64,000 bases of DNA, taken from Elusimicrobiales bacterium. GTDB taxonomy: Bacteria > Elusimicrobiota > Elusimicrobia > Elusimicrobiales > UBA9959. Both the position numbers and the translations under genes were made by a program. Below the pieces are notes generated by a model that saw nothing but the letters and a program-made list of their open reading frames with translations, did no database searches and was not told the origin of the DNA. The stretch covers positions 124,001 to 188,000 of the forward strand of contig JAQTZB010000002.1 of NCBI GenBank assembly GCA_028688015.1, read 5' to 3'. The first letter of the stretch is position 1, and each line of letters opens with the position of its first letter. This document shows positions 48,782-64,000 of the stretch, piece by piece.

Positions 48782-48800
48782 CCGTCCCCCCCAGGACAGA

Positions 48801-49394
48801 CTATATCTTGATCCGGCCCTTCAGCGCGTAACCCAGCGTCACTTCGTCCATGTAGTCTATATCTCCGCCCAGCGGCACGCCGTAGGCGATGCGGGTGATC
48901 TTGCCCACATAGGGCTTGACCAGCCGCGTCAGGTACATCGCCGTGGCCTCGCCGTCGGCGTCGGGGTTAGTGGCGATGATGAGCTCTTTGACGCCGCCGC
49001 CGGCCGCGCGCACGCGCTCCAGCAGCTCTTTGAGCTTGATCTGGTCCGGCATCACCCCGGCCGCCGGCGAGACCGCGCCGTGCAGCACGTGGTAAACCCC
49101 TGAAAAACTCTTGGCCTTCTCTATGGCCGCCAGGTCCTGCGGACGCTCCACAGCGCAGATCACTGAGCGGTCTCGCCCCTGGTCCGCGCAGACAGGGCAG
49201 AGGTCGCCCTCGGCGTAGTTATAGCACTCGGAGCAGTATTTCACCGAGGCCTTCACCTCGCGCAGGGCCGCCACCAGGCTCTCCACCTCGGGCGCAGAGG
49301 CGCGCACCACGTACATGGCGAAGCGCTCGGCCTGCTTGGGGCCGACGCCGGGGAATTTGCGGAATACGCCTATGATCTTTTCCAGCGCCTTCAT
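48801..49394 (-). CDS. recR: Recombination protein RecR
   Basis: FRKFPGVGPKQAERFAMYVV, CSECYN..CPVCAD zinc finger, Toprim region IIATNPDADGEATAMYL. Confidence 0.96.
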   Translation of the reverse strand: MKALEKIIGVFRKFPGVGPKQAERFAMYVVRASAPEVESLVAALREVKASVKYCSECYNYAEGDLCPVCADQGRDRSVICAVERPQDLAAIEKAKSFSGVYHVLHGAVSPAAGVMPDQIKLKELLERVRAAGGGVKELIIATNPDADGEATAMYLTRLVKPYVGKITRIAYGVPLGGDIDYMDEVTLGYALKGRIKI

Positions 49395-51082
49395 TTTACC
49401 TTGTTAATTTTTGTGATGCGGCCGTGGAACACCTTGGCCAGGTGCTTGAGCTCGGGCTCGGTCTCGGCGCCCACCTGCCTGGGGGCGTGCGGGGCCGGGT
49501 GGCGGGCCGGGGCCGGCGCGGCGTCGGGCGGTTCCACCAGCGTCTCGGCGTCACCGGAGTCCATCATGTCCGCTGGCAGCTCGGCCGGGGCCTCGACGGC
49601 GGCCTGCGGCGCGTGTTCGGGCTGCAGGGCCAGTTTGCGGCCGGCCAGCTTCGCCAGCATCTCTTCCAACTCGCCCCGGGCCGTCTCCATCATGCTGACT
49701 TCGAACTTGTTGGAGGTGAGCAGGCGCAGCTTGTCGGCGCCCTCCGGCACTATGCGTACCGAAAGGAGCACATTATAAAGGGAGGGTCTGCTGGAGGAGA
49801 CCTGGCCCAGCAGGCGCTTCCATGCGTCGGCGGGGGCCGCCGCGGGGGCCGGGACGGGAACAGGAGCAGGTCCGGGCGCGGGCCGCGCTGCGGCCGGAGC
49901 CGGGGCGGCTACCTCATTTTTTTTTTGAGCGCCGGGCTGCGGCGCGGGCGGGCTATACTCTCCCCCCTGGCCAAGCCGGGCCTCGAGCAGTTCGAGCTTG
50001 CGCACCAGCGCGTCCAGGTCCTGCGGCGCTTCCAGCAGGGTGAACAGCGCCACCTCGGAGGCCAGCGCCGGGGAATCGGAGAATTTAACTTCCTCTATGA
50101 TCACGTTGAGCTTGCGCGCCAGGCGCGCCAGCGCGCCGGCCTGAATGTCCTTGGGCAGCCCCTTTATTTCCGTGCCGCCGGGAAAGCCCTGGCCGGCCAG
50201 GTAGGCCCCGGCGAACAGGTTGCGCAGCTCGCGCAGCGCGGCCAGCGGGTCGTAGCCGTCGGCCGAGAGCGAGTCGAAAGCCTTGTGCAGCGCGGCGGCG
50301 TCGCGGCCCAGCAGGGCCAGCGCCATGGAATTTATCAGCTCGCCTCCGGGCTGGCCCAGCAGCTCGCTTATGACGGAAGCCTTGATCTCGCCGTGGGCGA
50401 AGGAGGCCGCGCGGTCCAGCATGGTCAGCGCGTCGCGCATGGCGCCGCCGGCGGAGCGGGCTATCAGGCGCAGGGCCTCGGGCTCGGCCTTGAGCTTTTC
50501 GGCCGCCGTCACCTCGGTCAGGCGGGCCACGATGTCCGCCTCGGAGATGGGGCGGAAGCGGAAGCACTGGGAGCGCGACAGGATGGTGGGCGGCACCTTG
50601 TTCTGCTCGGTGGTGGCCATGATGAACACCACGTGCGCCGGCGGCTCTTCCACGGTCTTGAGCAGCGCGTTGAAGGCGCCCTTGGAGAGCATGTGAACTT
50701 CGTCGAGGATGTAGATCTTGTACTTGTCGCGCGAGGGCGCGAAGTCCACGTGGTCGATGATGACGCCGCGCACGTCGTCCACGCCGGTGTTGGAGGCCGC
50801 GTCGATCTCTATGACGTCTATGGACTTGCTCTCGGCTATCTCGGTGCAGGACGGGCACTTGCCGCAGGGGCCGCCGTCCTTGGGCTTGTGGCAGTTCAGG
50901 GTCTTGGCCAGGATGCGGGCGATGGTGGTCTTGCCGCAGCCGCGCTGGCCGTAGAACACGTAGGAGTGGGCCACGCGGCCCAGCTTCACGGCGTTGAGCA
51001 GCGTGGTCTTGACGGTTTCCTGCCCCAGCACCTCCGTGAGGTCGCCGGGCCGGTACTTGGTGCCGAGGTTTTCGTATGACAT
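49391..51082 (-). CDS. dnaX: DNA polymerase III tau (and predicted gamma) subunit
   Basis: LGTKYRPGDLTEVLGQETVKTTLLNAVKLGRVAHSYVFYGQRGCGKTTIARILAKTLNC; P/A-rich linker; next to recR. Confidence 0.95.
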   Translation of the reverse strand: MSYENLGTKYRPGDLTEVLGQETVKTTLLNAVKLGRVAHSYVFYGQRGCGKTTIARILAKTLNCHKPKDGGPCGKCPSCTEIAESKSIDVIEIDAASNTGVDDVRGVIIDHVDFAPSRDKYKIYILDEVHMLSKGAFNALLKTVEEPPAHVVFIMATTEQNKVPPTILSRSQCFRFRPISEADIVARLTEVTAAEKLKAEPEALRLIARSAGGAMRDALTMLDRAASFAHGEIKASVISELLGQPGGELINSMALALLGRDAAALHKAFDSLSADGYDPLAALRELRNLFAGAYLAGQGFPGGTEIKGLPKDIQAGALARLARKLNVIIEEVKFSDSPALASEVALFTLLEAPQDLDALVRKLELLEARLGQGGEYSPPAPQPGAQKKNEVAAPAPAAARPAPGPAPVPVPAPAAAPADAWKRLLGQVSSSRPSLYNVLLSVRIVPEGADKLRLLTSNKFEVSMMETARGELEEMLAKLAGRKLALQPEHAPQAAVEAPAELPADMMDSGDAETLVEPPDAAPAPARHPAPHAPRQVGAETEPELKHLAKVFHGRITKINKVK

Positions 51083-51160
51083 AAAGCGGTGGTTAGAGAA
51101 CTTTCTGAAGTCCCACGGCCGCGCCCGGGGAACCCGGGCGGGCCGAGGAACGCGCGGGTT

Positions 51161-52036
51161 TTAGAACTTCAGGCCGGCGCCGATGGAGACGAAGCTCTTG
51201 TTCTTGTCGGCGTAGTTGAAGATCTGGTAGGTCAGGTTGGCGACCACCATGTTCAGGTCGACGTAGCCGCCCAGCGTGATGGTGGAGCTCTCGTCGGTCT
51301 TGGCGGAGGCGCTGCCGCCCTTGTACTTGGTCATGGTGTAGCCGGCGAAGGGCGTCACCATCGGGATGGTGGACGGGATGTCGACGCGGGCGTTCACGCT
51401 GGACTTGGGCTTGGCGGCCTGCACGAAGTTGAGGCCGCTGACGAAGTCCTGCGGGGTCGCGTCCTCGTCGCCGTAGCTGTAGCCGGTGAACGAGGCGGAC
51501 AGGTTGAGCATCAGCACCTTGGCGCCGGCGAACAGCATGGCGGCGGTCTCCGCGGTCTTCCGGTCGGAGGCGCCGGTGACGGCCTGGGTGTGCTGCGTCT
51601 GCTTCAGCGAGGCGCCCACGTCAACGCGGGCCACGCCTTCGCCGCCGCCGTAGGAGGCGCGCGCGCCGGGGCCGGCCAGGCGGGTCTTGCCGCCGGAGGT
51701 CGGGGTCAGCGAGAAGGTAATGTCGCCGGAAACGGACATGTTCTTGTAGCCGTTCACTTCGGGCGTGGTCGCGACCTCGCCGCCGACGGTGTACTTCTCG
51801 GCTTCCCACGCGCCGCGCAGGCCGTAGGTGTTGAAGGTCTTGTCCAGCGCGTCGGAGGTGTAGCGGGTCAGCGAAGGCTCGAAGGCCAGCTGGTCCTGCC
51901 CGATGCGGAGGTTCAGTTTGTAGCCGCTGTAGCCGTCAGGACCGGTGGTGCCGGTCAGGCCGCCGTCGAAGTACCAGGCGGAGGCGTTGAGGCCGAGCCC
52001 GGCCACGAGCGCCATAGAAACAATAAGTTTTTTCAT
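51161..52036 (-). CDS. Probable outer-membrane beta-barrel protein
   Basis: Signal peptide MKKLIVSMALVAGLGLNASA; alternating strands; C-terminal SIGAGLKF. Confidence 0.65.
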   Translation of the reverse strand: MKKLIVSMALVAGLGLNASAWYFDGGLTGTTGPDGYSGYKLNLRIGQDQLAFEPSLTRYTSDALDKTFNTYGLRGAWEAEKYTVGGEVATTPEVNGYKNMSVSGDITFSLTPTSGGKTRLAGPGARASYGGGEGVARVDVGASLKQTQHTQAVTGASDRKTAETAAMLFAGAKVLMLNLSASFTGYSYGDEDATPQDFVSGLNFVQAAKPKSSVNARVDIPSTIPMVTPFAGYTMTKYKGGSASAKTDESSTITLGGYVDLNMVVANLTYQIFNYADKNKSFVSIGAGLKF

Positions 52037-52125
52037 CTTTTTCCCCTTTTTTGCAACCGTTTTTCTCTAACCGAAAGCCGTTAAATCCACCTATATTATA
52101 CGATTTTTGCCTCCGCGCCATAAAT

Positions 52126-52157
52126 AAAAAACGCCCCCGGGGGCCGGGGGCGTTTTT
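52126..52157 (-). terminator. Intrinsic terminator after the 1150-aa gene
   Basis: aaaaaacgcccccgggggccgggggcgttttt. Confidence 0.8.
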
Positions 52158-52175
52158 AACGGATCAGAAACTTCT

Positions 52176-55100
52176 TTAGTTCTCGCAGGTGCCGACCGCG
52201 GTGCGGTAGTTGGCCGGTACGGTGCTCATGAAGGCGGCGCAGTCGCGCTTCTTCTGGCCCACGTACTGGATGCGGCTGTTGGCTGACTGGTTAGCCTGGG
52301 TGAAGGCCTGGTTCTTGGCTTCGAACCGGGTTTCCACCTTGCAGACGGCCCAGCAGGCGTTCTCGCCTATCACGCCGTCGCAGCGGTCGTCGCACTTCTT
52401 GAAGGCCGCGTCGAAGGTGGCCTTGGCCCTGTTGGAAGCGGCCACGGCCACGTCCATCTCCCTGCGGGCGTCCTGGATGGCCTGGTTCTTGACCTGCAGC
52501 GTGGCGCGGTAAGCCGCCGCGCGCTGCGGGTCTATGCCGCTGGTGCCGGAACCCGTGCTGGTGCCGGTACCGCTACCGGTGCTGTGCCCGGTATTGTGGC
52601 CGGTGTTGTGGCCGGCGGCAGGATGGCTGGGGATGCCTTCGAGGCGCTTCACGGTAGCCGCCGCCGGGGCGAACTGCGCGTGGGCGTTGTTGAAGGCGGC
52701 CTGCTTTTCGTCTATCTGCCGCTGTATGGCGGGCACGTCGGCGCCGGGCTTGGCGGCGGCCTCGCGCAGCGCGCCTACTTCGGAGCGCAGGGTGTTCATC
52801 CGCTGCATCTGCTCGCCGGCTACCCGCAGGTTGGAGGTGCAGGTAGTGGAGGTGCAGTTGCGGCGGCCGGCCCAGATCTCGTTATAGAGCGGCTGGTCCA
52901 CGGCGATGGTCGCATCCATGGCGCGCAGCGCTTCTACGCCAGCGTTGGAGGCGGACATCACGCCGGCTCCCGTGCCTGCGCCGGTACCGGAACCTGAGCC
53001 GGTACCAGTGCCGGTGGAGGCGCCTGAACCGGTGCCGGTACCCGTGCCGGTGGCGGAACCCGTGCCGGTGCCGGTGTTAGCGCCGCCGCCGGTGGGGTTG
53101 GCCATGTCTATCTTCCAGGTCTCCGTCAGGGTTTTGCGGATCTTCTCCATCTCTTCCTTGATGGGGTTCATCAGGCTGACGGCCGTGCCGGGGTCTACGG
53201 CGGCGTTACCGGCGTCTTTCTTAACCTCATCGGCGCCGCGTATGGAGGCGCCCAGCAGACTGGCCGGCGCAAGGTTATTAAGGTCGACTACGGCTGAGGC
53301 CACGCCTTTCTTAGTGGCGGGAGAGGTCTCGGCCCAGGCGGCGGCCTCGGCGCTGCGGCCCTCCGCGTCGTTGGGGCCTTTGGCCTCGAAGGGCGTTTCC
53401 TTATTAAGGCCGCGCCAGGTGACGGGCTTCGCTATCAGGGCCTCGCCATTGAGAGCGCTGTTAACGGAGCGGCCTACGAAGTCGGCCACGGCCGTCCGCA
53501 GGTCAGCCGGGGGCGCGCTAACATACTGCAGCCCGGACGGCAGGTTGGACGGCACCACCGGCTGCGCCGGAGGCGTAGCTACAGCGGAGTCCGCGCCGGA
53601 AAGGGCCAGGAACTTCTCCTTTATTTTCGTAACCTGCTCGGCGTTGGGCTGGCCGCTGCCCAGCTCGGTTTTAAGGGTATTCAGTTCGCCCAGTATGCCA
53701 TTGGCGGAGCCGAGCACGCTGCCCGTATAATCCTCGCTAACGCCGCCGGCCAGGGTTTTCACCTGCCCGAGCTGGCTGTTATAGACCGGCAGCGCGCGCT
53801 CGTGGAAGGCTATCTTGGCGTCGGCCTTGGCCACGAAGTCACGGTCGAAGGTGACCATCTGGTCCATGGCGCTCTGGACGTAAGGCTTCACGGCCTGGGT
53901 GGTATCGGCGGAAATGCCGTTGGCCGAGCCGCTTACCAGCGTATTGTTGTTCGCGGCGGCCAGGATGTTGGCCAACTGCGTCTTGAACAGCCTGTACTGG
54001 GACTTCTCGGCCTCTAGGTCGCGCTTAGCCGTAACTATGGCGCGCTCGTAGGCGTTCACCTCGCTGCTCTTGGTGGCGTCGGTGCGGTTATTGATTTCTA
54101 TGACCACCCGGTCGGCCTTGAGGTTGGCGAAACCTCCTGCCACGGCGATGCTCTTGTCGAGCAGCACCTTGGGATCGCTGGTGGCGGCGCCCGCCTGGAT
54201 GTCCAACAGCATCTGCTTGAGGGTCTCGTCGTAATCCTTGAAGACCTGGGCTATGGCGGGAGCGTTGCCGCTGCCCTGGCCGGTCTCGGTGCCGGTGCCG
54301 CCGCCGGTCGTGGTGCCGGTCTCGTTGCCGGTGCCGCCGCCGGTGTTAGTGCCGGTGGGGGTGCCGGTGGTAGTGCCGGCGCCGCCGGGCCACTCGTCAG
54401 TCGAGTAGACGCCGCAGGGGCAGGTCTTGCTGTCCCACTTCTTGATCGTTTCCGGGTCGGCGGACCTGGGGCCGCGTACCGGGTTATTGCAGTCGCCCGT
54501 GGGCGGGGTCAGCGCGCAGATATAGGTAGTAGGGGCGCCGCCGGGGCCGTTCAGGCCGCGCTCTACCTGCTTGCCGAACCACTCGGCCACCTTGCCTACC
54601 ACGGCGTTGATGATCTGCTTGGGGATCTCGTATTTCTTGAAGAACTCCCACTCCAGCGCCTTGTTCATGCGCTGCTTGGCGGCCATTTCGGCCAGCGTCT
54701 CGCCCGAGCGGTTATGCTCGTACTTGTTGTTGGAGTTGGATGGCTTCGTGGTCTTGTCGCCGTCGCCCAGGCCGCCGGCGCCGCCGGCGCCCGCGCCCAC
54801 GTTAACGGCTTCGGCCGCGGCCTTGTCCAGGGAGTTCATGGCCGAGCCGCCGGTGAAGTAGCCGGCCGACTTGTCGGCTTGCGAGCGCAGCTTCTCGAAC
54901 GCGCCCTTGGAGGCGCTGTTAGGGGTATTGCTGGCCACGCCCTTGTAGCCGGCCATAGCGACAGGGCCCACCATGGAGCGCTTGGCCGCCTTGGAGGACG
55001 CGGACTGCGCGTCCTGGATGATCTTGCCGCCGCCCAGCGAACCCGAGGAGCGGGTGCTCTCGCCGCCGCCGAACAGGCCGCGCATGCCGGACTGCATCTT

Positions 55101-55628
55101 AGGAATGGGGGTAGGGGCGCCGGCCGATTTGGTGGCCGCGGAGAAGGCCTCGCGGCCCGCGTCCTTCACAGCGTCGCGCCAGCTGCTCTGCGGCGGGGGC
55201 GCCGAGGCCGGAGGCATGACGGGCTGCGCGGGCTGGGAGCCCAGGATCAGCGAAGCGGGGTCGCGCGAACTCAGCGGGGTGATGACCTCGCCGGAGCCGT
55301 CGGAGGAGCCGGGGCTGAGGTTGCCCAGGCCGGAGTCGTTGGGGCCCTGGCCGCGCGGGCCGTTGAAGTCGTTGGCCCGGAGGAGGTTGGTCTCGGCCGG
55401 CTGGCTCATCATGTACTCGGCGACGGGAGCCATCACCAGGACGCTGAGGCCTATGCCCACGAAAGCCATGTCCTTGCGCGACAGGTTCTTGAGCCTGTCG
55501 AAGACGCTCCCCGCGGCGCGGGAGAACATAGGGGATTTGCCGAAAGCCGAGGTCTTTTTGAACGGCGATGCCGCCCCCGGTATCACCGGCGCCCCGCCCT
55601 TTTTGTCGTCGTCATTATAGAAGTTCAT
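52176..55628 (-). CDS. Large membrane-anchored low-complexity protein (1150 aa) of the accessory array
   Basis: Single N-terminal TM (MAFVGIGLSVLVMAPVAEYMM), IPKMQSG motif, three GTGTGTG-type linkers, Cys-containing segments; ggaggcggtt-ATG. Confidence 0.75.
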   Translation of the reverse strand: MNFYNDDDKKGGAPVIPGAASPFKKTSAFGKSPMFSRAAGSVFDRLKNLSRKDMAFVGIGLSVLVMAPVAEYMMSQPAETNLLRANDFNGPRGQGPNDSGLGNLSPGSSDGSGEVITPLSSRDPASLILGSQPAQPVMPPASAPPPQSSWRDAVKDAGREAFSAATKSAGAPTPIPKMQSGMRGLFGGGESTRSSGSLGGGKIIQDAQSASSKAAKRSMVGPVAMAGYKGVASNTPNSASKGAFEKLRSQADKSAGYFTGGSAMNSLDKAAAEAVNVGAGAGGAGGLGDGDKTTKPSNSNNKYEHNRSGETLAEMAAKQRMNKALEWEFFKKYEIPKQIINAVVGKVAEWFGKQVERGLNGPGGAPTTYICALTPPTGDCNNPVRGPRSADPETIKKWDSKTCPCGVYSTDEWPGGAGTTTGTPTGTNTGGGTGNETGTTTGGGTGTETGQGSGNAPAIAQVFKDYDETLKQMLLDIQAGAATSDPKVLLDKSIAVAGGFANLKADRVVIEINNRTDATKSSEVNAYERAIVTAKRDLEAEKSQYRLFKTQLANILAAANNNTLVSGSANGISADTTQAVKPYVQSAMDQMVTFDRDFVAKADAKIAFHERALPVYNSQLGQVKTLAGGVSEDYTGSVLGSANGILGELNTLKTELGSGQPNAEQVTKIKEKFLALSGADSAVATPPAQPVVPSNLPSGLQYVSAPPADLRTAVADFVGRSVNSALNGEALIAKPVTWRGLNKETPFEAKGPNDAEGRSAEAAAWAETSPATKKGVASAVVDLNNLAPASLLGASIRGADEVKKDAGNAAVDPGTAVSLMNPIKEEMEKIRKTLTETWKIDMANPTGGGANTGTGTGSATGTGTGTGSGASTGTGTGSGSGTGAGTGAGVMSASNAGVEALRAMDATIAVDQPLYNEIWAGRRNCTSTTCTSNLRVAGEQMQRMNTLRSEVGALREAAAKPGADVPAIQRQIDEKQAAFNNAHAQFAPAAATVKRLEGIPSHPAAGHNTGHNTGHSTGSGTGTSTGSGTSGIDPQRAAAYRATLQVKNQAIQDARREMDVAVAASNRAKATFDAAFKKCDDRCDGVIGENACWAVCKVETRFEAKNQAFTQANQSANSRIQYVGQKKRDCAAFMSTVPANYRTAVGTCEN

Positions 55629-55966
55629 AACCGCCTCCGATCGCTAATTTAAAATCCGCTGAACGATAATACCGCGCAAAACCGCGTATATAGTTCTCCG
55701 ATTATAATCTACCCGATACCGCGCCCGCTTCCAAGTGCCCTTGGGCCCCTAAACCGCTGGGCCCTTTGGCCCGGGCCGCAAAAAAACCCGCCGGTAAAAC
55801 CAGACCGCCTACCGGGCGGCCCCGGAGGAAAGTTCCGAAAAAAACGCATTAAATGAACGCACGCTCTGTTGCACAAGTTTTTTCAACACCGGAACTATCC
55901 TCCGAACAGGCTTTAACCTCGGGCTTAAGAAAACGCCGCAAACCGCGACCGCGCCGGCGGGTGGCT

Positions 55967-57475
55967 TTATTCCCCTCCGGCTACCTTGCTGATAAAGCCG
56001 CTGACCATGTCGCCTATGGGGCCGAACATGCTGCCGTTGCCCAGGATCGAGCCGACAGCCAGCACGCCTACTATGACGGCGCCCAGTATGCCGAACAGGC
56101 CGCCCAGCAGGATCATCAGGATGACGGCCAGCCAGCACTTCCACTTGGAGCAGGGCTTGATCTTCATCTTGTTGTAGCCGGCGCAGTTCATGGGGCTGCT
56201 CTTGTTCTGGCAGGCGGCCGCCAGCTGCACCTCGTGGCCGTTATAATCGTTGCAGTAGCCGATGATCCGGTCTATCTTGCCGTTCCAGGCGCCCACGCCG
56301 CTGCTGCAGCACTTGGGCGGCTTGCCCAGCGTCTTGCCGACGTCTTCCATCTTCTTGCCGTCGTCGGACATGGCCGCGCCGTGCGTGCCGGAGGCTTCGG
56401 AACAGGCCTTGGCCTGGTTCTGCAGGTCGCCGGCCCCGGAGATGAGGTCCCCGGTGAACGAGGTGTCGGGAACGCTCGGCGGCGACCCGGCGTCGGTCTG
56501 TATCACGTCGAGGTTGGCGTCGTTGCCGTCGTAAGTGGTGCCGGTATAAGAAGCCTGGTATTCCAGCGCCGACTCTTTGGATTTGAAGGCCGCTCCGGTC
56601 ATGGCGAAGGTCTCGGCCAGCTGGAACATGGGCTTCTTGGAATTCAGCTTGATGTTCATCTTGGCGCTGTTGGTCTTGTAGCCGACGTTCTTCCAGGAGA
56701 AGCCGGAGACGCGGCCCATGATCTTGGTTTTAACCTTCTGCGGGGAGCCCGGCACGGGTACTTTGGAGGCCGACTGCCCCATGACCTTGCTGTACATGCC
56801 GGCCGCGCCGCCGCCGCCGGTGCCGCCGGGGCCGCGCAGCAGGGTGCGGTTGGCGTAGGGGCCGCTGCCGGAAGCGGAGCCGTCCGCGAAATTGCCCGCG
56901 AGGTTCTGGCCCATCAGGTCGCCGTAGAGGCCGCCGCCGCCCTGGCCGGCGTTAGCCAGCAGGCCCTGCAGGTCCACGCCGTCGGCGCCCTGGCCGTTGG
57001 CCTGTTCTTCATCGTTAACGGCGCCCTTGACCTGGCCCGCGCCGCGCTTGGCGTCCTTGCCGTCCTTCAGCACCGGGGGCCCGAAGATGTCGTCGGCCCC
57101 GCCGCGCAGCAGCGCGATGGAGGACGGCCCGCCGCCGGGCGGCATCGTGGCGTTGATGCTCTTGAGGAACTTGGCCCAATAGGAATTCTGCGCGCTGTCC
57201 TCGGCGGCCTTGTCCATGGCCGCCCGCAGCAGGTCGTTGGAATACTTGGGGTTGATGGTGGACACGATGCTGCCAAGGCCCACCGTCCTGAGGAACGAGG
57301 CCACGGGGCCGAGTTCGAGTATCCTGCCTAAGGTCTCCCCGGAGATCACGAAGGGCACGGAAAGGATGGTGAGGATGAGCAGGATGCCCACGTACTTGGT
57401 CCTGCCCTGAAAAATAAAGAGCAGGGCCGCCAGGACCGATTTACGTTTATGTTTTTCTACGAACTTGCTGCCCAT
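55967..57475 (-). CDS. Accessory-array membrane protein with Cys-rich segment and C-terminal hydrophobic domain
   Basis: MGSKFVEKHKRKSVLAALLFIFQGRTKYVGILLILTILSVPFVISG; CCSSGVGAWNGKIDRIIGYCNDYNG; C-terminal TMs; RBS ggaggttatATG. Confidence 0.75.
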   Translation of the reverse strand: MGSKFVEKHKRKSVLAALLFIFQGRTKYVGILLILTILSVPFVISGETLGRILELGPVASFLRTVGLGSIVSTINPKYSNDLLRAAMDKAAEDSAQNSYWAKFLKSINATMPPGGGPSSIALLRGGADDIFGPPVLKDGKDAKRGAGQVKGAVNDEEQANGQGADGVDLQGLLANAGQGGGGLYGDLMGQNLAGNFADGSASGSGPYANRTLLRGPGGTGGGGAAGMYSKVMGQSASKVPVPGSPQKVKTKIMGRVSGFSWKNVGYKTNSAKMNIKLNSKKPMFQLAETFAMTGAAFKSKESALEYQASYTGTTYDGNDANLDVIQTDAGSPPSVPDTSFTGDLISGAGDLQNQAKACSEASGTHGAAMSDDGKKMEDVGKTLGKPPKCCSSGVGAWNGKIDRIIGYCNDYNGHEVQLAAACQNKSSPMNCAGYNKMKIKPCSKWKCWLAVILMILLGGLFGILGAVIVGVLAVGSILGNGSMFGPIGDMVSGFISKVAGGE

Positions 57476-57611
57476 ATAACCTCCATTGGCGAACTGCGCC
57501 GCTGGAAAAACTCCATACACCTATTTAACGCCAGAAAAATCGCTTCCCGTTACGTCCGGTGCCGCCGGGCTTAAAACCCGGCGGCAGCCGCTCTACCCTC
57601 CAAAAGACCGC

Positions 57612-59144
57612 TTACTTGCCGCCCAGCATGCTCCCGATGAGCGCTATGGCGCCGGCGCCGGCCGCCATCCAGGCGGGGGTTATCGGGCCGAGATCGACGC
57701 CGGCCAGGGCCATGCCGGCCGCCGCGGTGGCGCAGCCGCCGCCGATGGTATAGAGGGTACCGAGGGTCGACTGCCCGTGCTGCTGCATGATCATGATACC
57801 CATGATGGTGGCAGCTATGCCCAGCGCCAGCGCGACGCCGGCCAGGGCCATGCCGATGCCCCTCAGGGACGTACCGGCCGCTATCATGGCGGCGCCGGCA
57901 GCCGCGGTGTAAGGCACGGCCGCGAGCGCGGTGCCTTCCTGGATCATGGCGTCGCCCATCTTAATAAGCTTGGCGCCTATACCGGCGAGCAGGGCCGCCA
58001 TCAGGATCAGCATCATCGCGATGGTGGTCAGGCTGCCCCACGGGCTTACGTTGGCGGCAGGAGGAGGTTCGGGGATGACGGGCTCCGCGGGAGTGCCGGT
58101 GCCGCCGCCGCCGCCGCCTGTGCCGGAGTTATCCAGCGAGGGAGAGGTCACCAGGCCCGCGCCGCCTTCGCTGATGCCGGCGCCGCCAGCCGAGGCATCG
58201 CCCTCGCCGGTGCTGCCTTCCCAGGCTTTATCCTGCGTGGAGCGCGCCGAGTCTATGCTGGAGCCGCTATAGGACTGCTGCATGGCCTTCATGCCCTTGG
58301 CCTGCCCGAAGGCTCCGGGAGCCAGGGCGCCCTTCTTGCCGGCCTTGGCGCCGCCGAACACGGGGCGGGCCGAGCCTTTCATGGAGAGCATCTTGCCCTT
58401 GCGCGAGTCGAACTTGGGCATGGACGAGAAGCCCGCGCCGATGCCCGAAGAGAAGCCGGGCTTGCCGCCGGTGGCGCCCGAACCGAACTTGTTGCTGAAG
58501 CCGCCCATGTTGGAGAACTTGCTGGAGCCGCCGCCGAGCTGGCTGGTGAGCGAGCCCATGCTGCCGCCCTGCAGTTTGCCCATCATCTCCTGGGCCATGC
58601 CGCCGGCCTGGTCCGCGCCGGGCTGCGCGTTGGGATCCGCCGCCTGGCCTTCGGCAGCCGCGTCTGTCGGCTTGCCGGCGTCGGGGGCCGCCTTGGCCTT
58701 TGAGGCGTCGCCTTCCATGGCCACGGCGCCCTTGTTGGTCTCCTTGAACATGTCCAGGGAGGACCCGCTGTTGGCGGCCTGGCTGCGCAGGATGGCCGGC
58801 ACATAGTTGTCGGGCGTCTTGCCGGAGCTGAAGGCCGCGGTGCTGGTAGCGGGAGCCGGGGCGTTATTAGCCAGGTAGACACCGCCTGCCACGGCTACCA
58901 TGGCTACGGTGGCTACGATGCCGGCCTTGCCGGCCAGCAGGCCCGCCAGGCCGCCCGAGGCGGAGGCGCCGAACTTGCCGGCGCCGAGGGCGCCGCGGCC
59001 GAGGTTCATGGCCGAGGGGTTTATCCCCGCCTCGCCCATGGCCCCGCGGGAGGCGCCGCCGAACTTGCCGCGAAGCCAGCCAAGCGCGCCGCCCTTCTTT
59101 TCCTTCTTTTCCTTGAAGTTAATTTCTGGTAGATTGTCGTTCAT
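57612..59144 (-). CDS. Accessory-array membrane protein, paralogue of neighbours
   Basis: MNDNLPEINFKEKKEKKGG..; SSLDMFKETNKG; C-terminal multi-TM domain; RBS gggaggcgttATG. Confidence 0.75.
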   Translation of the reverse strand: MNDNLPEINFKEKKEKKGGALGWLRGKFGGASRGAMGEAGINPSAMNLGRGALGAGKFGASASGGLAGLLAGKAGIVATVAMVAVAGGVYLANNAPAPATSTAAFSSGKTPDNYVPAILRSQAANSGSSLDMFKETNKGAVAMEGDASKAKAAPDAGKPTDAAAEGQAADPNAQPGADQAGGMAQEMMGKLQGGSMGSLTSQLGGGSSKFSNMGGFSNKFGSGATGGKPGFSSGIGAGFSSMPKFDSRKGKMLSMKGSARPVFGGAKAGKKGALAPGAFGQAKGMKAMQQSYSGSSIDSARSTQDKAWEGSTGEGDASAGGAGISEGGAGLVTSPSLDNSGTGGGGGGTGTPAEPVIPEPPPAANVSPWGSLTTIAMMLILMAALLAGIGAKLIKMGDAMIQEGTALAAVPYTAAAGAAMIAAGTSLRGIGMALAGVALALGIAATIMGIMIMQQHGQSTLGTLYTIGGGCATAAAGMALAGVDLGPITPAWMAAGAGAIALIGSMLGGK

Positions 59145-59168
59145 AACGCCTCCCAAATATCCCTCGAA

Positions 59169-60713
59169 CTATATACCGCTCATTATACCGCCGACAGACG
59201 ACAGGCCGCTGCCGATGGACGACAGCGTGCCGCCGGCCCCGCCCAGCACGCCAGGAGTGGCGGCAGTGCCGGGAACCGCGGCGACGGCGGGGGTAGTGGT
59301 GGTGACCGAAGTCTGCACGCCGTTGACCGTGCTCGTGGTCGTGGTGGTGGAGGCGGGGGTGCCCGGGGTACCGGCGGTGGCGGGCTTGGCGCCCGCGGAG
59401 CCGGCGTCGGAGCAGGCCTGGCCCAGGGCCTTTATGGCCTCGAGCATCAGCATCACACCGGTAAGGATGTAGATGCCGCCCATCATCTTCTGGTCGAACT
59501 TGTTCATCATCGTGAAGCCGGCCATGATGACCGTGATGGCCTTAATGATGGCGAAGATGGCCGCGGCGGCCGCCAGGGCGGAGAAGATGACCTTCCCCCA
59601 AGGACCGCACATATTGCCGATCTTGGTGAAGAGCTTGGCGAGCAGGATGGCGCCCAGGGCCCACATCATGCCGTTCATGGCCTTGTCTTCCTCGGCCTGC
59701 CAGGGGTCAACGTCCTCGGGCTTAGGCACCTTGGGGGGCGTGTACTCGTTGGAGCTCAGGCTGGGGTCGTTGCCCTTGAGGCCCGCGCCGTTGGAAACGC
59801 CCGCGCCGCCCAGGCCAGCGCCCGCGGCGGGAGACCCGGAGTCGCCGCCGCTGGTCTCGCCGGTGAAAGCTTCGGTGGCGCTGGTGCGCGCCCCCGCGCC
59901 GTCGGCGGAGTAGGCGGCCTTGGCGCCCATCTTGCCGGCGAACTTGGCCTGGCCGTAAGCGCCCTTCTTGTTGACGTTAGGAATAGCGTATTTAGGCGAG
60001 CTCTTGACCCGGGCCGCAGAGGCGGTCATGGCCGAGGTCTTGCCGGCATTGGCCTGGGCCGGGGGCCTGTAAACGGGCTGGAACTGGGCGCCTATGCCGC
60101 CGGCCAGGCCGGAGCCGCCCTGCATCCTGGGGATGGAGGACCCGGCGCCCGAGCCGCCCCCCTTGCTGCCGAAACCCGCATTGGCCTGCAGTTTGGGGCC
60201 GCCCGCGGCCGCGCCGGCGCCCATCGCGGCGTCGCCGCCGGGAGCCGAGGGAGCCTCGGCCGAAGCGTCGGCGGAGGAATTGGCGGGATCGCCGGCCTCC
60301 GCGGAACCGCCGCCCTCGCCCTCGCCGCCGAGCCCGAGGCCGTCCTTCTTGGCCTGCTCCTTGAACATGTCAAGCGTGGAGGAAGCCGCGGCCGAAGCGT
60401 CGCGCGACTGCGCCCGCTCGACGCTGGCCCTGGAGGCTTCTTCTTCTATGTAGGTATTCTGAAAGAGGTCGGGATTATAAACCGGCTTGGAGGAGGGGCC
60501 TATGAAGTTGTAGACCACGCCCACGCCCGCGGCCAGGGTAGCGCCGCCGAGCACCATGCCGAGTATGCCGGCCTTGCTGGCGAAAAGCCCAGCGAGGCCG
60601 CCGCCAGAGCCCAGCCCGGAGGAGGCGCCGCCGCCCACGGCGGACGAGCCTCCGCTGCCGAAGAGCCCGCCGATGCCGGCTTTCTTTTCTTTTTTCTCGT
60701 TATAATCGTTCAT
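59169..60713 (-). CDS. Accessory-array membrane protein, paralogue of neighbours
   Basis: MNDYNEKKEKKAGIGG..; STLDMFKEQAKK; IPRMQGGSGL; NDPSLSSNEYTPPKVPKPED; C-terminal multi-TM domain; RBS gggaggagttATG. Confidence 0.75.
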   Translation of the reverse strand: MNDYNEKKEKKAGIGGLFGSGGSSAVGGGASSGLGSGGGLAGLFASKAGILGMVLGGATLAAGVGVVYNFIGPSSKPVYNPDLFQNTYIEEEASRASVERAQSRDASAAASSTLDMFKEQAKKDGLGLGGEGEGGGSAEAGDPANSSADASAEAPSAPGGDAAMGAGAAAGGPKLQANAGFGSKGGGSGAGSSIPRMQGGSGLAGGIGAQFQPVYRPPAQANAGKTSAMTASAARVKSSPKYAIPNVNKKGAYGQAKFAGKMGAKAAYSADGAGARTSATEAFTGETSGGDSGSPAAGAGLGGAGVSNGAGLKGNDPSLSSNEYTPPKVPKPEDVDPWQAEEDKAMNGMMWALGAILLAKLFTKIGNMCGPWGKVIFSALAAAAAIFAIIKAITVIMAGFTMMNKFDQKMMGGIYILTGVMLMLEAIKALGQACSDAGSAGAKPATAGTPGTPASTTTTTSTVNGVQTSVTTTTPAVAAVPGTAATPGVLGGAGGTLSSIGSGLSSVGGIMSGI

Positions 60714-60738
60714 AACTCCTCCCAATTTAAATACGGGG

Positions 60739-61677
60739 TCAGACAGCGGCGCCCAGGGGCCCGAAGACGGCACCCAGGGCCATCTTCAGCACCATCTGTA
60801 TTATCATCATCTTTATCTGCTTCTTCATCTCTTCGCTTTCATCGGTGGCGTCCTCCGGCTTGGAGGGCGGGGTGATCTTGGTCTTGCTCAGGCTGGGATC
60901 GTTCTTCTTGAGGTCCTGGGCGGTCTGGCCCATCTGCAGGCCCGACAGCGCGGAGCTCTGCTCCATCTGGCCGTTAAGGTTTTCGCCGGTGGGCCCTTTG
61001 GCGGAACTGCCGAAGGCGGAGGCCGCGCCGCCCTTGGCCTGGTCCATATTGCCGGTCTTCACGGCGGACTCGCTCTTCTGGGCGCTGTTGCCCAGCATCG
61101 CCACCAGGGAATTCTTCTTGTCGACCACGGGCGCCTTCAGGTCGGCCTTGGTGGTGGGGGCGAACTCGGCCTTCTGGGCGCCTGAGCCGAAGAACTTGTT
61201 ATGCATGCCGCCGGCCGTCATGGAATTGGAGTTGCCGCCGGTGATGGAGGCCGCGGCGGCCAGCTTGCCGCCCTTGGGCCCCATGGGCGCCGGGGCGCCG
61301 GCGGAACCGGAAGGAGGCGGCGCCACGGGGGCGGAGGCGGAAGCGTCCGCGGTGGCGGAGGCGTCAGCGGTCTCCTCCTCGAGGGGACCGGACTGGAAAA
61401 GGGAGGAAGCTATGTTCTCGCCCGAGGTGGCGGGGTTGTTTATCATCTCGCCGCTGAGCGGGGAGCCGGGGGCGCCGGCCTCGGAGGCAATGTCGCTGCC
61501 CAACATGCCGATGTCGGCCACCTTGGAGCGGAACGGGTTGCCGGCGGAAACCGAGGAATCCAGCGAAGAGCCGCTCATCAGGGGGAGGCCTATCCAGAGG
61601 GCGAGCATGATGACCGCCACAGTGCCGCCGATAGCATACTGCGTCGACTTGCTCTTTTTGTTTTGGAATTTCATCAT
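60739..61677 (-). CDS. Accessory-array membrane protein, paralogue of neighbours
   Basis: MMKFQNKKSKSTQYAIGGTVAVIMLALWIGLPLM; NSMTAGGMHNKFFGSGAQ; NDPSLSKTKITPPSKPED; short C-terminal hydrophobic segment. Confidence 0.75.
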   Translation of the reverse strand: MMKFQNKKSKSTQYAIGGTVAVIMLALWIGLPLMSGSSLDSSVSAGNPFRSKVADIGMLGSDIASEAGAPGSPLSGEMINNPATSGENIASSLFQSGPLEEETADASATADASASAPVAPPPSGSAGAPAPMGPKGGKLAAAASITGGNSNSMTAGGMHNKFFGSGAQKAEFAPTTKADLKAPVVDKKNSLVAMLGNSAQKSESAVKTGNMDQAKGGAASAFGSSAKGPTGENLNGQMEQSSALSGLQMGQTAQDLKKNDPSLSKTKITPPSKPEDATDESEEMKKQIKMMIIQMVLKMALGAVFGPLGAAV

Positions 61678-61778
61678 AACCCCGCCTCTTATTGTCCCGT
61701 TGCCGCACCCAAAAATAACTTTAAACTTTTCCTGACACAGCCCCCGGGGCGTTCAGGTCAAAGTTGATTTACAGTGAT

Positions 61779-61807
61779 GTTATAGCAGACAAAAGTTGAC
61801 TTGTCAA
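61779..61807 (-). promoter_or_regulatory. Sigma70-type promoter of the accessory-array operon
   Basis: Reverse strand TTGACA-N17-TATAAC upstream of the 312-aa gene. Confidence 0.8.
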
Positions 61808-61830
61808 GGGCACACCCGGGCAGCCGGCCT

Positions 61831-63087
61831 TTACTTAGGGTTCTCAGTCACCATCAGGCCCAAGACGTTACCCTTGTCGTCATAGGTGACCTTGTCATTG
61901 TAAGTGATAACGGTGCCATCGGCGTTAACCTGCTCGCCCTTGAATTCGCAGGTGAAAGTGGGCGGCGGCCCCTGGTTAACGGTAATAGCGCGGCTCGAGT
62001 CCTTGTACTTGTCTCCATCCTCGGTGGTGCAGCCCTGCCCGCAGGTCACATCGTTTATGGAATTCTGAACGCCCTCCGGCAGCTGGGCCATGCCGGTGGC
62101 TCCGCCGGCCCCGGTACCGGTGCCGGTACCCGCCCCGGCTCCCGCCCCGGTAGTGGTGCCTGACTTGCCGCCCATGGCGCCCTCCGCCGCCTTGACGGCG
62201 GCCGCAGCGGCTTCTTTCTTCATGTCCGCTTCGGCTTTATCCTTGGCGGCCTGCTGCACTTTGGCGTCCTCGCCCAGCGCTTTCTTGGTGCCCTCCTCGT
62301 CCTTCAGGGGATTGCCCACCTCGGAGGGCTTCAGGGCGCCTTTCTTGTCCATCTTCAGGTCGGCTATGTCGCCGCTCTTGATCTTGTCCAGGCCTACCAG
62401 GCCGGTCTTGGTATAGGACATATCGCCGCCGCGGTTGCTGCCGCTGCCCAGGCCGAAGCTCTGGTTCCATTTGGCGCTCGCGGTCATGGCGGAGCCGGAA
62501 CGAAGCCCTTCGCCCAGCAGCGCCCGGGTGTTCTTAAGGGTGGCCAGCGTGCCTTTGCCTTCGCCTCCGGTTGCGCCCGATTGGGATCTATTGGAAACGG
62601 AAGTGGCCCCGGCCGCCGAACCTTCGCCGAACCTGGTAGCCGAGCCGGCGGATTTGGAGCCGCCCCCCCCGCCGCCCAGGCCCGAACCGCCGCCGGCCTG
62701 CATCTTGGGCACCGAGGCAGGCGAGGCGGACCGGGAAGACCCGCCGGAGGCCGAGGACGCCGGGGCCTTCTCCATCCAGTCGGACATGTCGGGGTTGGAG
62801 GCCGCTATCCCCAACTCGTCCAGCGGCAGGCCGCGGCTGGCGTTGCGGGCCACGGCCGCGTCGGAGAGTTTAGGCTCTTCTTCGGGAATTACGCCCATGG
62901 ATTTGAAGAAGGAAGTCACGCCTTCCCTGGCGGCGGTGCCGTAGGAGAAGTTCTGGTTCTTGCCGGCCCTGGTCAGGTCGTTGGAACCCTGCACGATGAA
63001 GAAGAGGAAGATGCCGCCGCCGGCGAACAGGAAGGCCAGCACTGAAACTATCAGCGTCTTCCTCCGGTTGCTGGAATTGTCCTGCAT
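61831..63087 (-). CDS. Accessory-array membrane protein (first gene), Gly/Ser/Ala-rich
   Basis: N-terminal TM TLIVSVLAFLFAGGGIFLFFIV; SVPKMQAGGGSGLGG; SAMTASAKWNQSFGLGSG; GTGTGTGAGG linker. Confidence 0.75.
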   Translation of the reverse strand: MQDNSSNRRKTLIVSVLAFLFAGGGIFLFFIVQGSNDLTRAGKNQNFSYGTAAREGVTSFFKSMGVIPEEEPKLSDAAVARNASRGLPLDELGIAASNPDMSDWMEKAPASSASGGSSRSASPASVPKMQAGGGSGLGGGGGGSKSAGSATRFGEGSAAGATSVSNRSQSGATGGEGKGTLATLKNTRALLGEGLRSGSAMTASAKWNQSFGLGSGSNRGGDMSYTKTGLVGLDKIKSGDIADLKMDKKGALKPSEVGNPLKDEEGTKKALGEDAKVQQAAKDKAEADMKKEAAAAAVKAAEGAMGGKSGTTTGAGAGAGTGTGTGAGGATGMAQLPEGVQNSINDVTCGQGCTTEDGDKYKDSSRAITVNQGPPPTFTCEFKGEQVNADGTVITYNDKVTYDDKGNVLGLMVTENPK

Positions 63088-63223
63088 AACGGCCCCCTAT
63101 CTGCGTATGAACAAAAAATAGATTCCCGTTTTTCACCCTTCCCCATAAGACTGGCCGGGAAACTGAAAAAGCAGGTTTCTTACAATTAGAGTCTAGCAGA
63201 CAAAACGATTATTTTCAAGGGGC

Positions 63224-63254
63224 AAAAAAAGCCCCGGCTTCCCGGGGCTTTTTA
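63224..63254 (-). terminator. Intrinsic terminator downstream of the 176-aa repeat protein
   Basis: aaaaaaagccccggcttcccggggcttttt. Confidence 0.8.
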
Positions 63255-63271
63255 GCGCTTAAGGGACGGGC

Positions 63272-63802
63272 TCAATTGCCCTTGCCCTTCCTCTTGCCGC
63301 CGTGCTGCTTGCGCTCTCCGCGCTCCTGCATATGTTCGCCCTGGTTCTGCATGCGCTCGCCCTTCTTTTCCATGCGCTCGCCCTTGCTCTCTTTGCGTTC
63401 CGCGTTGCGCTCCAGCTTCTGGGCCGCGTTCAGGTTGCCCTTCTCCTCCTGCTTGGCCGCCTGCTCGCGCATCTTGTCGGCCTGGTCCTGCTGGCGTTCG
63501 CCTTTGTTCTCGAGCCGTTCGCCGCGCTCCTCGCGCTTCTCGCCGCGCTTCTCCAGGCGTTCGCCGCGGTGCTCGCGCTTCTGGCGGTGGTGGATGCCGG
63601 GGCCGCCGTCCTGCCGTTCTGAACTCCCGGCCGAAGGGGTGGCGGGCGTAGCGGGGGTGGCCGGGGTCGCCGGGGTATCGGCTGTGGCCGGGGTGGCGGG
63701 GGTTGCCGGAGTGGCCGGGTTGCCCTTGTTATCGGGCTTGGCGGCGAAGGACGGGCCGGAGGCCGCCCAGACAAGTACAGCCGCGATCATCAGTTTTTTC
63801 AT
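63272..63802 (-). CDS. Secreted repeat protein: Pro-Ala-Thr repeats followed by charged heptads
   Basis: Signal peptide MKKLMIAAVLVWAASGPSFA; PATPATPATP; RGERLEKRGEKREERGERLENKGERQQD; Confidence 0.7.
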   Translation of the reverse strand: MKKLMIAAVLVWAASGPSFAAKPDNKGNPATPATPATPATADTPATPATPATPATPSAGSSERQDGGPGIHHRQKREHRGERLEKRGEKREERGERLENKGERQQDQADKMREQAAKQEEKGNLNAAQKLERNAERKESKGERMEKKGERMQNQGEHMQERGERKQHGGKRKGKGN

Positions 63803-63832
63803 ATCGTTCTCCCTTTCAATTCCGCTATGCTC

Positions 63833-64000
63833 CTAGGCTCCGGCGCCGCAGGGCACCGTGGTCTTATGCTTCTCCGCTATGGTATCAGCCAGCTCGTCCA
63901 CCAGTTTCAGGTCAGCCTCGGTCGGCATGCCTTTCACCATGACCGGCTTGAGCACTTCGGCCTTGAGGTTGGGGATCAGGCCGGCTATGGTCTCCACGGC
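63833..64000 (-). CDS. C-terminal fragment, possibly A-type flavoprotein (FprA-like)
   Basis: AVETIAGLIPNLKAEVLKPVMVKGMPTEADLKLVDELADTIAEKHKTTVPCGAGA*: resembles the tail of FprA flavodoxin domains; truncated by window edge. Confidence 0.45.
   Translation of the reverse strand, partial: AVETIAGLIPNLKAEVLKPVMVKGMPTEADLKLVDELADTIAEKHKTTVPCGAGA

What the first reader, a model, noticed from the sequence alone, without database searches (positions are those of the whole stretch)
52176..63087. Array of six diverged, motif-sharing, membrane-anchored low-complexity proteins: candidate undescribed system
Six consecutive same-strand genes encode large proteins with the same plan. Each has a short, often Lys-rich N-terminus, one TM helix and a long Gly/Ser/Ala-rich region. 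Several end in a hydrophobic multi-TM domain. Seen directly: S[ST]xLDMFKExxK after the TM (60713 and 59144 genes); [IV]P[KR]MQxG (52176, 59169 and 61831 genes); [S]AMTASA or SMTAGG followed by FG-G (59169, 60739, 61831 genes); NDPSLSxxxxTPPxxPxPED (59169 and 60739 genes). Short motifs kept within low-complexity sequence suggest ancient duplication with interaction sites retained. No family I know accounts for the set. A surface or envelope assembly is an inference.
Basis: partly seen in the sequence, partly recalled or inferred. Interest (0 to 1): 0.78.

Follow-up and report, generated by a model that had tools for sequence, protein, structure and literature searches.

The report
Tad pilus accessory gene array
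Six neighbouring genes in an uncultivated bacterium of the phylum Elusimicrobiota encode a divergent family of membrane-anchored, glycine/serine-rich proteins with no known relatives; in related bacteria the same genes sit inside the gene cluster for a Tad (type IVc) pilus, so they are most likely an undescribed accessory part of that surface machine.

Summary
Six consecutive minus-strand genes (52176-63087) encode N-terminally anchored Gly/Ser/Ala-rich proteins with no significant match in Pfam, NCBIfam, PHROGs or PADLOC. They are related: g3/g4 are clear paralogs (hhalign E 3e-50), and g1-g2, g2-g3, g4-g5, g1-g6 and g2-g6 share stretches scoring above every column-shuffled control. The low-complexity N-terminal halves are conserved, the C-terminal halves are not. 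Gene order is kept in about 30 loci.

The "undescribed stand-alone system" reading is only partly right. In other families of the class the same genes lie inside a Tad (type IVc) pilus locus. In G170: TadG-like, TadE, FtsH-like AAA/M41 protease, then g1-g2-g3. In G095: RcpC, secretin, TadZ-TadA fusion, T2SSF, Flp-like, TadG-like, TadE, then the array through g6. In the window's family the array lies beside dnaX, while the Tad core is on another contig (C43) with a g1 paralog.

Best explanation: a lineage-specific accessory module of the Elusimicrobiota Tad machine, inner-membrane anchored with flexible periplasmic tethers. The Tad link is strong; the exact role is inferred. Rival: pilus-borne or exported cargo. 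Tad loci in Elusimicrobia are already known; I found no description of this module.

The parts
61831..63087 (-). g1, 418 aa: short Lys/Arg N-terminus, one TM (10-35), Gly/Ser-rich region with VPKMQ and SAMTASA..FG motifs; variable C-terminus. A paralog sits in the Tad cluster on contig C43 (53322-54764)
   Evidence: paralog by hhalign 97.1%, E 6.5e-11; g1 directly after FtsH-like in a Tad cluster in G170 (L159:2845-4002, 1.7e-17)
60739..61677 (-). g2, 312 aa: one TM (13-39), Gly/Ser-rich region, NDPSLS motif and short hydrophobic C-terminus
   Evidence: (52 of 101 genomes searched); shares 84 columns with g3, hhalign 97%, E 1.1e-10
59169..60713 (-). g3, 514 aa (ORF listed to 60773; conserved start at 60713): Lys-rich N-terminus, small-residue-rich TM (48-71), LDMFKE, IPRMQ, NDPSL motifs, C-terminal three-helix hydrophobic domain (337-441)
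   Evidence: paralog of g4; AlphaFold pLDDT above 80 only in about 341-430
57612..59144 (-). g4, 510 aa: paralog of g3; LDMFKE motif; C-terminal TM segments (368-397, 426-455)
   Evidence: (g3-g4 E 2.7e-50)
55967..57475 (-). g5, 502 aa: TM near the N-terminus, conserved central region, conserved cysteines, C-terminal hydrophobic helices
   Evidence: C-terminal similarity to g4 (90%, above shuffled controls); AlphaFold confident only in residues about 350-460
52176..55628 (-). g6, 1150 aa: conserved N-terminal ~345 aa with one TM (53-74) and motifs; variable long C-terminus
   Evidence: profile found in 113 of 341 Elusimicrobiota genomes
61779..61807 (-). Conserved promoter-like site before g2: TTGACA-AGTCAA...CTGC-TATAAC
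   Evidence: near-identical before g2 in almost all orthologous loci; not Tad-specific, other genes of the genome carry it
63190..63218 (-). Conserved promoter-like site before g1: TTGAAA-17-TAGACT

Best explanation
The six genes are the distal, lineage-specific half of the Elusimicrobiota Tad (type IVc) pilus locus, detached from the core genes in this family. They encode a paralogous set of inner-membrane-anchored proteins: a short positively charged cytoplasmic tail, one TM helix (very rich in conserved Gly/Ala in g3), a long flexible Gly/Ser-rich periplasmic region carrying short conserved binding motifs, and in g3, g4 and g5 a second hydrophobic helical domain at the C-terminus. Proposed mechanism: the small-residue TM helices pack the paralogs into a hetero-oligomer around the Tad inner-membrane platform. 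The flexible arms, through their motifs, tether or gate the periplasmic path between the platform/RcpC and the unusually short secretin. Variable C-termini and the variable number of g3/g4 copies adapt the assembly to each species. Shown: paralogy, conservation, synteny with Tad genes. Inferred: topology, oligomerisation, periplasmic role.
For: Synteny. G170 (L159): TadG-like, TadE, FtsH-like, g1 (1.7e-17), g2 (2.8e-57), g3 (1.7e-64), all on one strand (TadE position). G095: RcpC (6.6e-17), secretin (9.2e-42), TadZ-TadA fusion, T2SSF, TPR, Flp-like (class III signal 2.7e-5), TadG-like, TadE, then g4-like, g3-like, g2 (7e-75), g3 (3e-99), g4, g5 (2e-82), g6 (8e-164) on one contig. f14/f15 and gut f2 loci show TadG-TadE(-FtsH)-array. 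Own genome: the Tad core on C43 has RcpC and a short secretin (identified by reading the translations), plus T2SSE+CbiA, T2SSF and TadE by Pfam, with a g1 paralog after the FtsH-like gene. Distribution: every family with g6 also has the strong TadE-like match; 103 of the 113 g6-positive genomes have it, by my reading of the two lists. Paralogy. Conserved Gly/Ala TM and motifs. Disorder with folded C-terminal helices.
Against: In the window's own family the array is not beside the Tad core but next to dnaX, so there the link rests on relatives and one paralog. A single-contig 1,643,562-bp genome (G067) has the Tad core with no array beside it, and family f11 has the TadE-like gene but no detected g6, so the module is not essential to Tad. 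In gut f2 genomes only g5 and g6 (and g2 in G060) are supported by sequence; the rest is by position and plan. Nothing here shows contact with Tad proteins. Structure predictions are low-confidence and give no PDB match.
Confidence: 0.6

Rival explanations
1. The proteins are cargo of the Tad machine rather than scaffold: large minor-pilin-like or tip/surface proteins whose N-terminal hydrophobic helix enters the filament or is released, displaying Gly/Ser-rich stalks and variable C-terminal ends outside the cell, matured by the neighbouring FtsH-like and S41-type proteases.
For: They follow directly after the minor-pilin-like TadG and TadE genes. A conserved N-terminal half with variable C-terminus is what a display protein would look like. 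Myxococcus Kil/Tad pili carry interchangeable TadEFG-like tips with variable domains (PMC12075869). An FtsH-like protease with intact HEAGH and Walker A and an S41 lipoprotein lie in the cluster.
Against: No TadE/TadG-type prepilin motif before the hydrophobic helix and no TadE Pfam match in any of the six. g3, g4 and g5 carry a second multi-helix hydrophobic domain, which would be odd for an extracellular protein.
Confidence: 0.25
2. An envelope assembly of its own that merely lives next to Tad genes in some lineages.
For: In family f1 (51 of 59 genomes by the g2 search) the array, where examined, is unlinked from Tad and mostly sits upstream of dnaX.
Against: Adjacency to TadE/TadG recurs in at least four other families with the same relative order, and a g1 paralog stays in the f1 Tad cluster. 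No genome family has the array without the Elusimicrobiota-type TadE.
Confidence: 0.1
3. A compositional coincidence: unrelated Gly/Ser-rich membrane proteins that look alike.
For: All six are low-complexity; weak TolA-like hits arise from composition.
Against: Column-shuffled profiles never reach the observed scores; g3/g4 are unambiguous paralogs; the N-terminal halves of g6 and g3 are mostly 50-80% identical across genera of the family.
Confidence: 0.03

Closest known systems
Tad / Flp (type IVc) pilus machine; Tad loci of Elusimicrobia (Denise et al. 2019, PMC6668835; Tad-like region of E. minutum and Endomicrobium, PMC8809381)
   Same: The array is embedded in this locus in several families, downstream of TadG-like and TadE; the own genome has RcpC, secretin, TadZ-TadA, TadB/TadC-like (T2SSF), TPR, Flp-like, TadG-like, TadE
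   Different: None of the six proteins matches a Tad family, and I found no published Tad locus described as carrying such an array; TadZ and TadA are fused and the secretin is only 240-259 aa here
TadE/TadF/TadG minor pilins and Kil tip complexes of Myxococcus (PMC12075869)
   Same: Neighbouring genes; N-terminal hydrophobic helix followed by a long variable part
   Different: No prepilin motif or TadE profile match in the array; extra C-terminal TM domains in g3-g5
RcpC/CpaB alignment complex (PMC12307814)
   Same: Inner-membrane single-TM proteins with a periplasmic part in the same machine (functional analogy only)
   Different: RcpC is encoded separately in the same genomes; the array has no SAF/RcpC domain
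TolA
   Same: TM-anchored, Ala/Lys-rich periplasmic protein; weak NCBIfam hit of g1 (E 0.002)
   Different: 17.4 bits against a cut-off of 59.45; a composition match

Membership tests
Tad (type IVc) pilus locus | Array genes encoded within a locus holding RcpC, secretin, TadZ/TadA, T2SSF, TadE | tested here: met
   Met in G095 (full core, one contig); TadG/TadE part met in G170, G060 and f14/f15/gut loci. Not adjacent in the window's own family
Tad (type IVc) pilus locus | A Tad core in the window's own genome | tested here: met
   C43: T2SSE+CbiA fusion, T2SSF, TadE by Pfam; RcpC-like and secretin-like ORFs by reading translations. Prepilin peptidase not looked for
Known Tad component (any of TadA-G, TadZ, RcpA-C, Flp) | Array protein matches the component's profile | tested here: not met
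   No significant Pfam or NCBIfam match for any of the six
Type IV prepilin / TadE-TadG minor pilin | TadE/TadG-type (G/A-Q..E/P) prepilin motif before the hydrophobic helix | tested here: not met
   A pattern scan found it in TadE/TadG neighbours but not in the array genes
RcpC/CpaB | SAF/RcpC domain | tested here: not met
   No PF16976 match in the array; matched by a separate gene
TolA | Score over the curated cut-off | tested here: not met
   17.4 bits against 59.45
Tad (type IVc) pilus machine | Array needed for, or physically part of, pilus assembly | not testable with these tools
   needs genetics, pull-down or cryo-ET

The most novel reading that the evidence does not exclude
The array is a new class of envelope-spanning Tad component: a hetero-oligomer of disordered, motif-bearing tethers that replaces the missing N-domains of the short Elusimicrobiota secretin and forms the periplasmic conduit or gate of the pilus, a building principle not seen in other type IV filament machines.
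Probability: 0.2. Interest if true: 0.8.

Novelty: new variant of a known kind. Interest (0 to 1): 0.62.

Why it matters
It gives a class-wide family of unannotated proteins, about 11 kb of array in this genome, a concrete home: the Tad pilus. It suggests that Elusimicrobiota Tad machines have a large extra module that standard Tad models miss, alongside a fused TadZ-TadA and a very short secretin. It also offers a test case for how conserved short motifs in disordered, TM-anchored proteins build an envelope machine. Gut relatives with the module inside the Tad locus could make it testable.

Tried and rejected
Pfam, NCBIfam, PHROGs and PADLOC on the six proteins: nothing significant. PDB sequence search with the g6 and g5 profiles: only chance hits. 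AlphaFold of g5 and g3 from 15-18 orthologs: mean pLDDT 43 and 49, confident only in C-terminal helices; Foldseek against PDB, no hit at E <= 0.001. Rfam over 48000-64000: none. The conserved TTGACAAGTCAA promoter as a possible link to Tad regulation: rejected, it occurs before unrelated genes. gA (C40:190485-192134), a protein of similar plan: no profile similarity to the six, so left out. Prepilin-like reading of the array: no motif. Homologs outside the phylum could not be searched for with profiles; the one collection-wide scan reaches close relatives only.

Full report
WHAT IS THERE. The window lies at G000:C40:124001-188000 in a 3.34-Mb draft genome. The nearest named record is Elusimicrobia bacterium GWC2_64_44 (86% identity in g3). 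Six minus-strand genes run g1 (61831-63087), g2, g3, g4, g5, g6 (52176-55628), followed by a conserved signal-peptide protein (51161-52036) and dnaX. g2, g3 and g4 are tightly packed (about 25 nt between genes). g5 and g6 are set off by about 136 and 338 nt. Conserved sigma-70-like sites precede g1 and g2. No protein has a significant match in Pfam, NCBIfam, PHROGs or PADLOC.

IS IT MORE THAN CHANCE. Seventeen loci encoding g3 relatives were found in 84,980 species genomes, all in Elusimicrobia records or MAGs titled only 'bacterium'. Adding 20 loci from relatives gave an ortholog table with the same gene order wherever the contigs reach. Profile-profile comparison gives g3-g4 E 2.7e-50, g2-g3 97% (84 columns), g4-g5 90% (hydrophobic C-terminus), g1-g2 87%, and weaker g2-g6 and g1-g6. 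Each weaker pair, rerun against 16 column-shuffled versions that keep local composition, beat all of them. So the six are a diverged paralogous family; g1-g6 and g2-g6 are the least certain.

WHERE ELSE. The g2 protein is found in 52 of 101 genomes: 51 of 59 genomes of the own family f1, and one of family f2. The g6 N-terminal profile is found in 113 of 341 genomes of the phylum: families f1, f2 (few and mostly weak), f9 and f12-f15 of the same class, and nowhere else. Genome and family labels are anonymous in this tool.

THE KEY FINDING. Outside f1 the array is part of a Tad (type IVc) pilus locus. In G170 (f9) the order on one strand is response regulators, TadG-like, TadE, FtsH-like AAA/M41 protease, g1 (1.7e-17), g2 (2.8e-57), g3 (1.7e-64), then the contig ends; a toxin-antitoxin-like gene pair lies between g1 and g2. 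In G095 (f2) one contig carries RcpC (6.6e-17), secretin (9.2e-42), a TadZ(CbiA)-TadA(T2SSE) fusion, T2SSF, TPR, HAMP protein, regulators, a Flp-like protein with a class III signal, TadG-like, TadE, and then g4-like, g3-like, g2, g3, g4, g5, g6. Loci of f14 and f15 (L092, L102, L103, L107, L108) and gut f2 (L098, L099, L106, L158) show TadG/TadE, with FtsH-like in several f14/f15 loci, followed by the array; in L108 only the TadG-like gene was seen and in L099 TadE is known from its genome coordinates. In gut genomes only g5 and g6 (g2 in G060) are supported by sequence; the others are assigned by position and plan.

IN THE WINDOW'S OWN GENOME. The TadE-like gene is at C43:50926-51450, and around it lies a Tad core. 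Pfam identifies the T2SSE+CbiA fusion, T2SSF, two TadE proteins (one over the cut-off, one just below it) and the FtsH-like AAA/M41 protein. RcpC-like (256 aa) and secretin-like (240 aa) ORFs precede the fusion; I identified these two by reading their translations against the Pfam-confirmed ones of G095. Right after the FtsH-like gene lies a 480-aa g1 paralog (hhalign 97.1%, E 6.5e-11, above all shuffles). The simplest history is that the array moved, within the genome, from the Tad locus to the dnaX locus in the ancestor of f1, leaving a g1 copy behind. That history is inference.

CO-OCCURRENCE. The Elusimicrobiota-type TadE profile finds 240 of 341 genomes at E <= 0.001; by my count of the list about 197 are strong (E < 1e-20), all in f1, f2 and f9-f15. 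By comparing the two lists by hand, 103 of the 113 g6-positive genomes have the strong TadE match; the other ten belong to families that otherwise have it, many being incomplete drafts. The reverse is not true: f10 and f11 have TadE without a detected g6, and the single-contig genome G067 has the Tad core with no array beside it. Its length, 1,643,562 bp, equals that of E. minutum Pei191 as I recall it; not checked. The array is therefore an accessory, not core, component.

HOW IT MAY WORK. Directly from sequence: Lys-rich N-termini, a TM helix in g3 with conserved Gly/Ala spacing (A48 G49 G52 G56 A58 A61 A62 G63 G65), long Gly/Ser-rich stretches with islands of invariant residues, conserved cysteines in g5. 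AlphaFold sees disorder except for C-terminal helical domains in g3 (337-441) and g5 (about 350-460), without PDB matches. Conserved motifs in predicted disorder suggest binding sites for structured partners; small-residue TM helices suggest helix packing. In Pseudomonas the RcpC ring docks on the N-domain of the secretin RcpA (PMC12307814). The Elusimicrobiota secretin here is only 240-259 aa, with the Pfam secretin domain taking residues 96-259 in G095, so little room remains for N-domains. I therefore favour an inner-membrane-anchored periplasmic scaffold or gate. The main rival is that the proteins are pilus-borne or exported cargo next to the TadE/TadG tip genes, as interchangeable tips are in Myxococcus (PMC12075869). 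I put the association with Tad at about 0.85 and the scaffold role, given that, at about 0.6 to 0.7.

WHAT IS KNOWN. Tad systems in Elusimicrobia were reported by Denise et al. 2019 (PMC6668835), and a Tad-like region in E. minutum and Endomicrobium by PMC8809381. I found no paper describing this array, within an open-access library only. Verdict: a new accessory module on a known kind of machine.

Noticed in passing
L133:5224-7440 (G000:C43) and L135:16419-18638: TadZ (MinD/CbiA-like) and TadA (T2SSE) are fused into one 738-739 aa protein in Elusimicrobiota Tad loci.
   Followed up: partly
L133:4442-5164, L135:18672-19451, L156:12829-13575: The Tad secretin is only 240-259 aa, apparently lacking the usual N-domains.
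   Followed up: partly
L134:4533-6236, L092:15264-16973, L159:4326-6047: An FtsH-like AAA/M41 protease with intact HEAGH and Walker A sits between TadE and the array in several families; in PADLOC its AAA part matches IetA models.
   Followed up: partly
L134:7792-8916: A lipoprotein-like S41 peptidase with PDZ domain follows the g1 paralog in the Tad cluster.
   Followed up: no
L026:6485-8134 (C40:190485-192134): gA, 549 aa, similar plan (N-terminal TM, Gly/Ser-rich, folded-looking C-terminus) with orthologs in about ten loci, but no profile similarity to the six.
   Followed up: partly
63272-63802: Signal-peptide protein with PATPATP and RGERLEKRGE-type repeats, patchily conserved.
   Followed up: no
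51161-52036: Conserved 291-aa signal-peptide protein between g6 and dnaX, possibly an outer-membrane barrel; no Pfam match.
   Followed up: no
L013:13060-14424, L014:13589-14947, L017:13366-14742, L022:13170-14537: A gene that reads like a B12-binding radical SAM protein is inserted between g4 and g5 in some genomes; a deoxyhypusine-synthase-like gene lies between g6 and dnaX in others (from reading the sequence, not tested).
   Followed up: no
L091:10096-19901, L094:11384-19901, L096:12625-19901: In f14/f15, g6 is followed by genes for very large secreted-looking proteins (900 to over 2000 aa) without Pfam domains that explain them.
   Followed up: partly
61796-61807 and seven other places in G000: Palindromic TTGACAAGTCAA overlaps the -35 box of several promoters in this genome (8 copies; the reversed control pattern has none).
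   Followed up: partly
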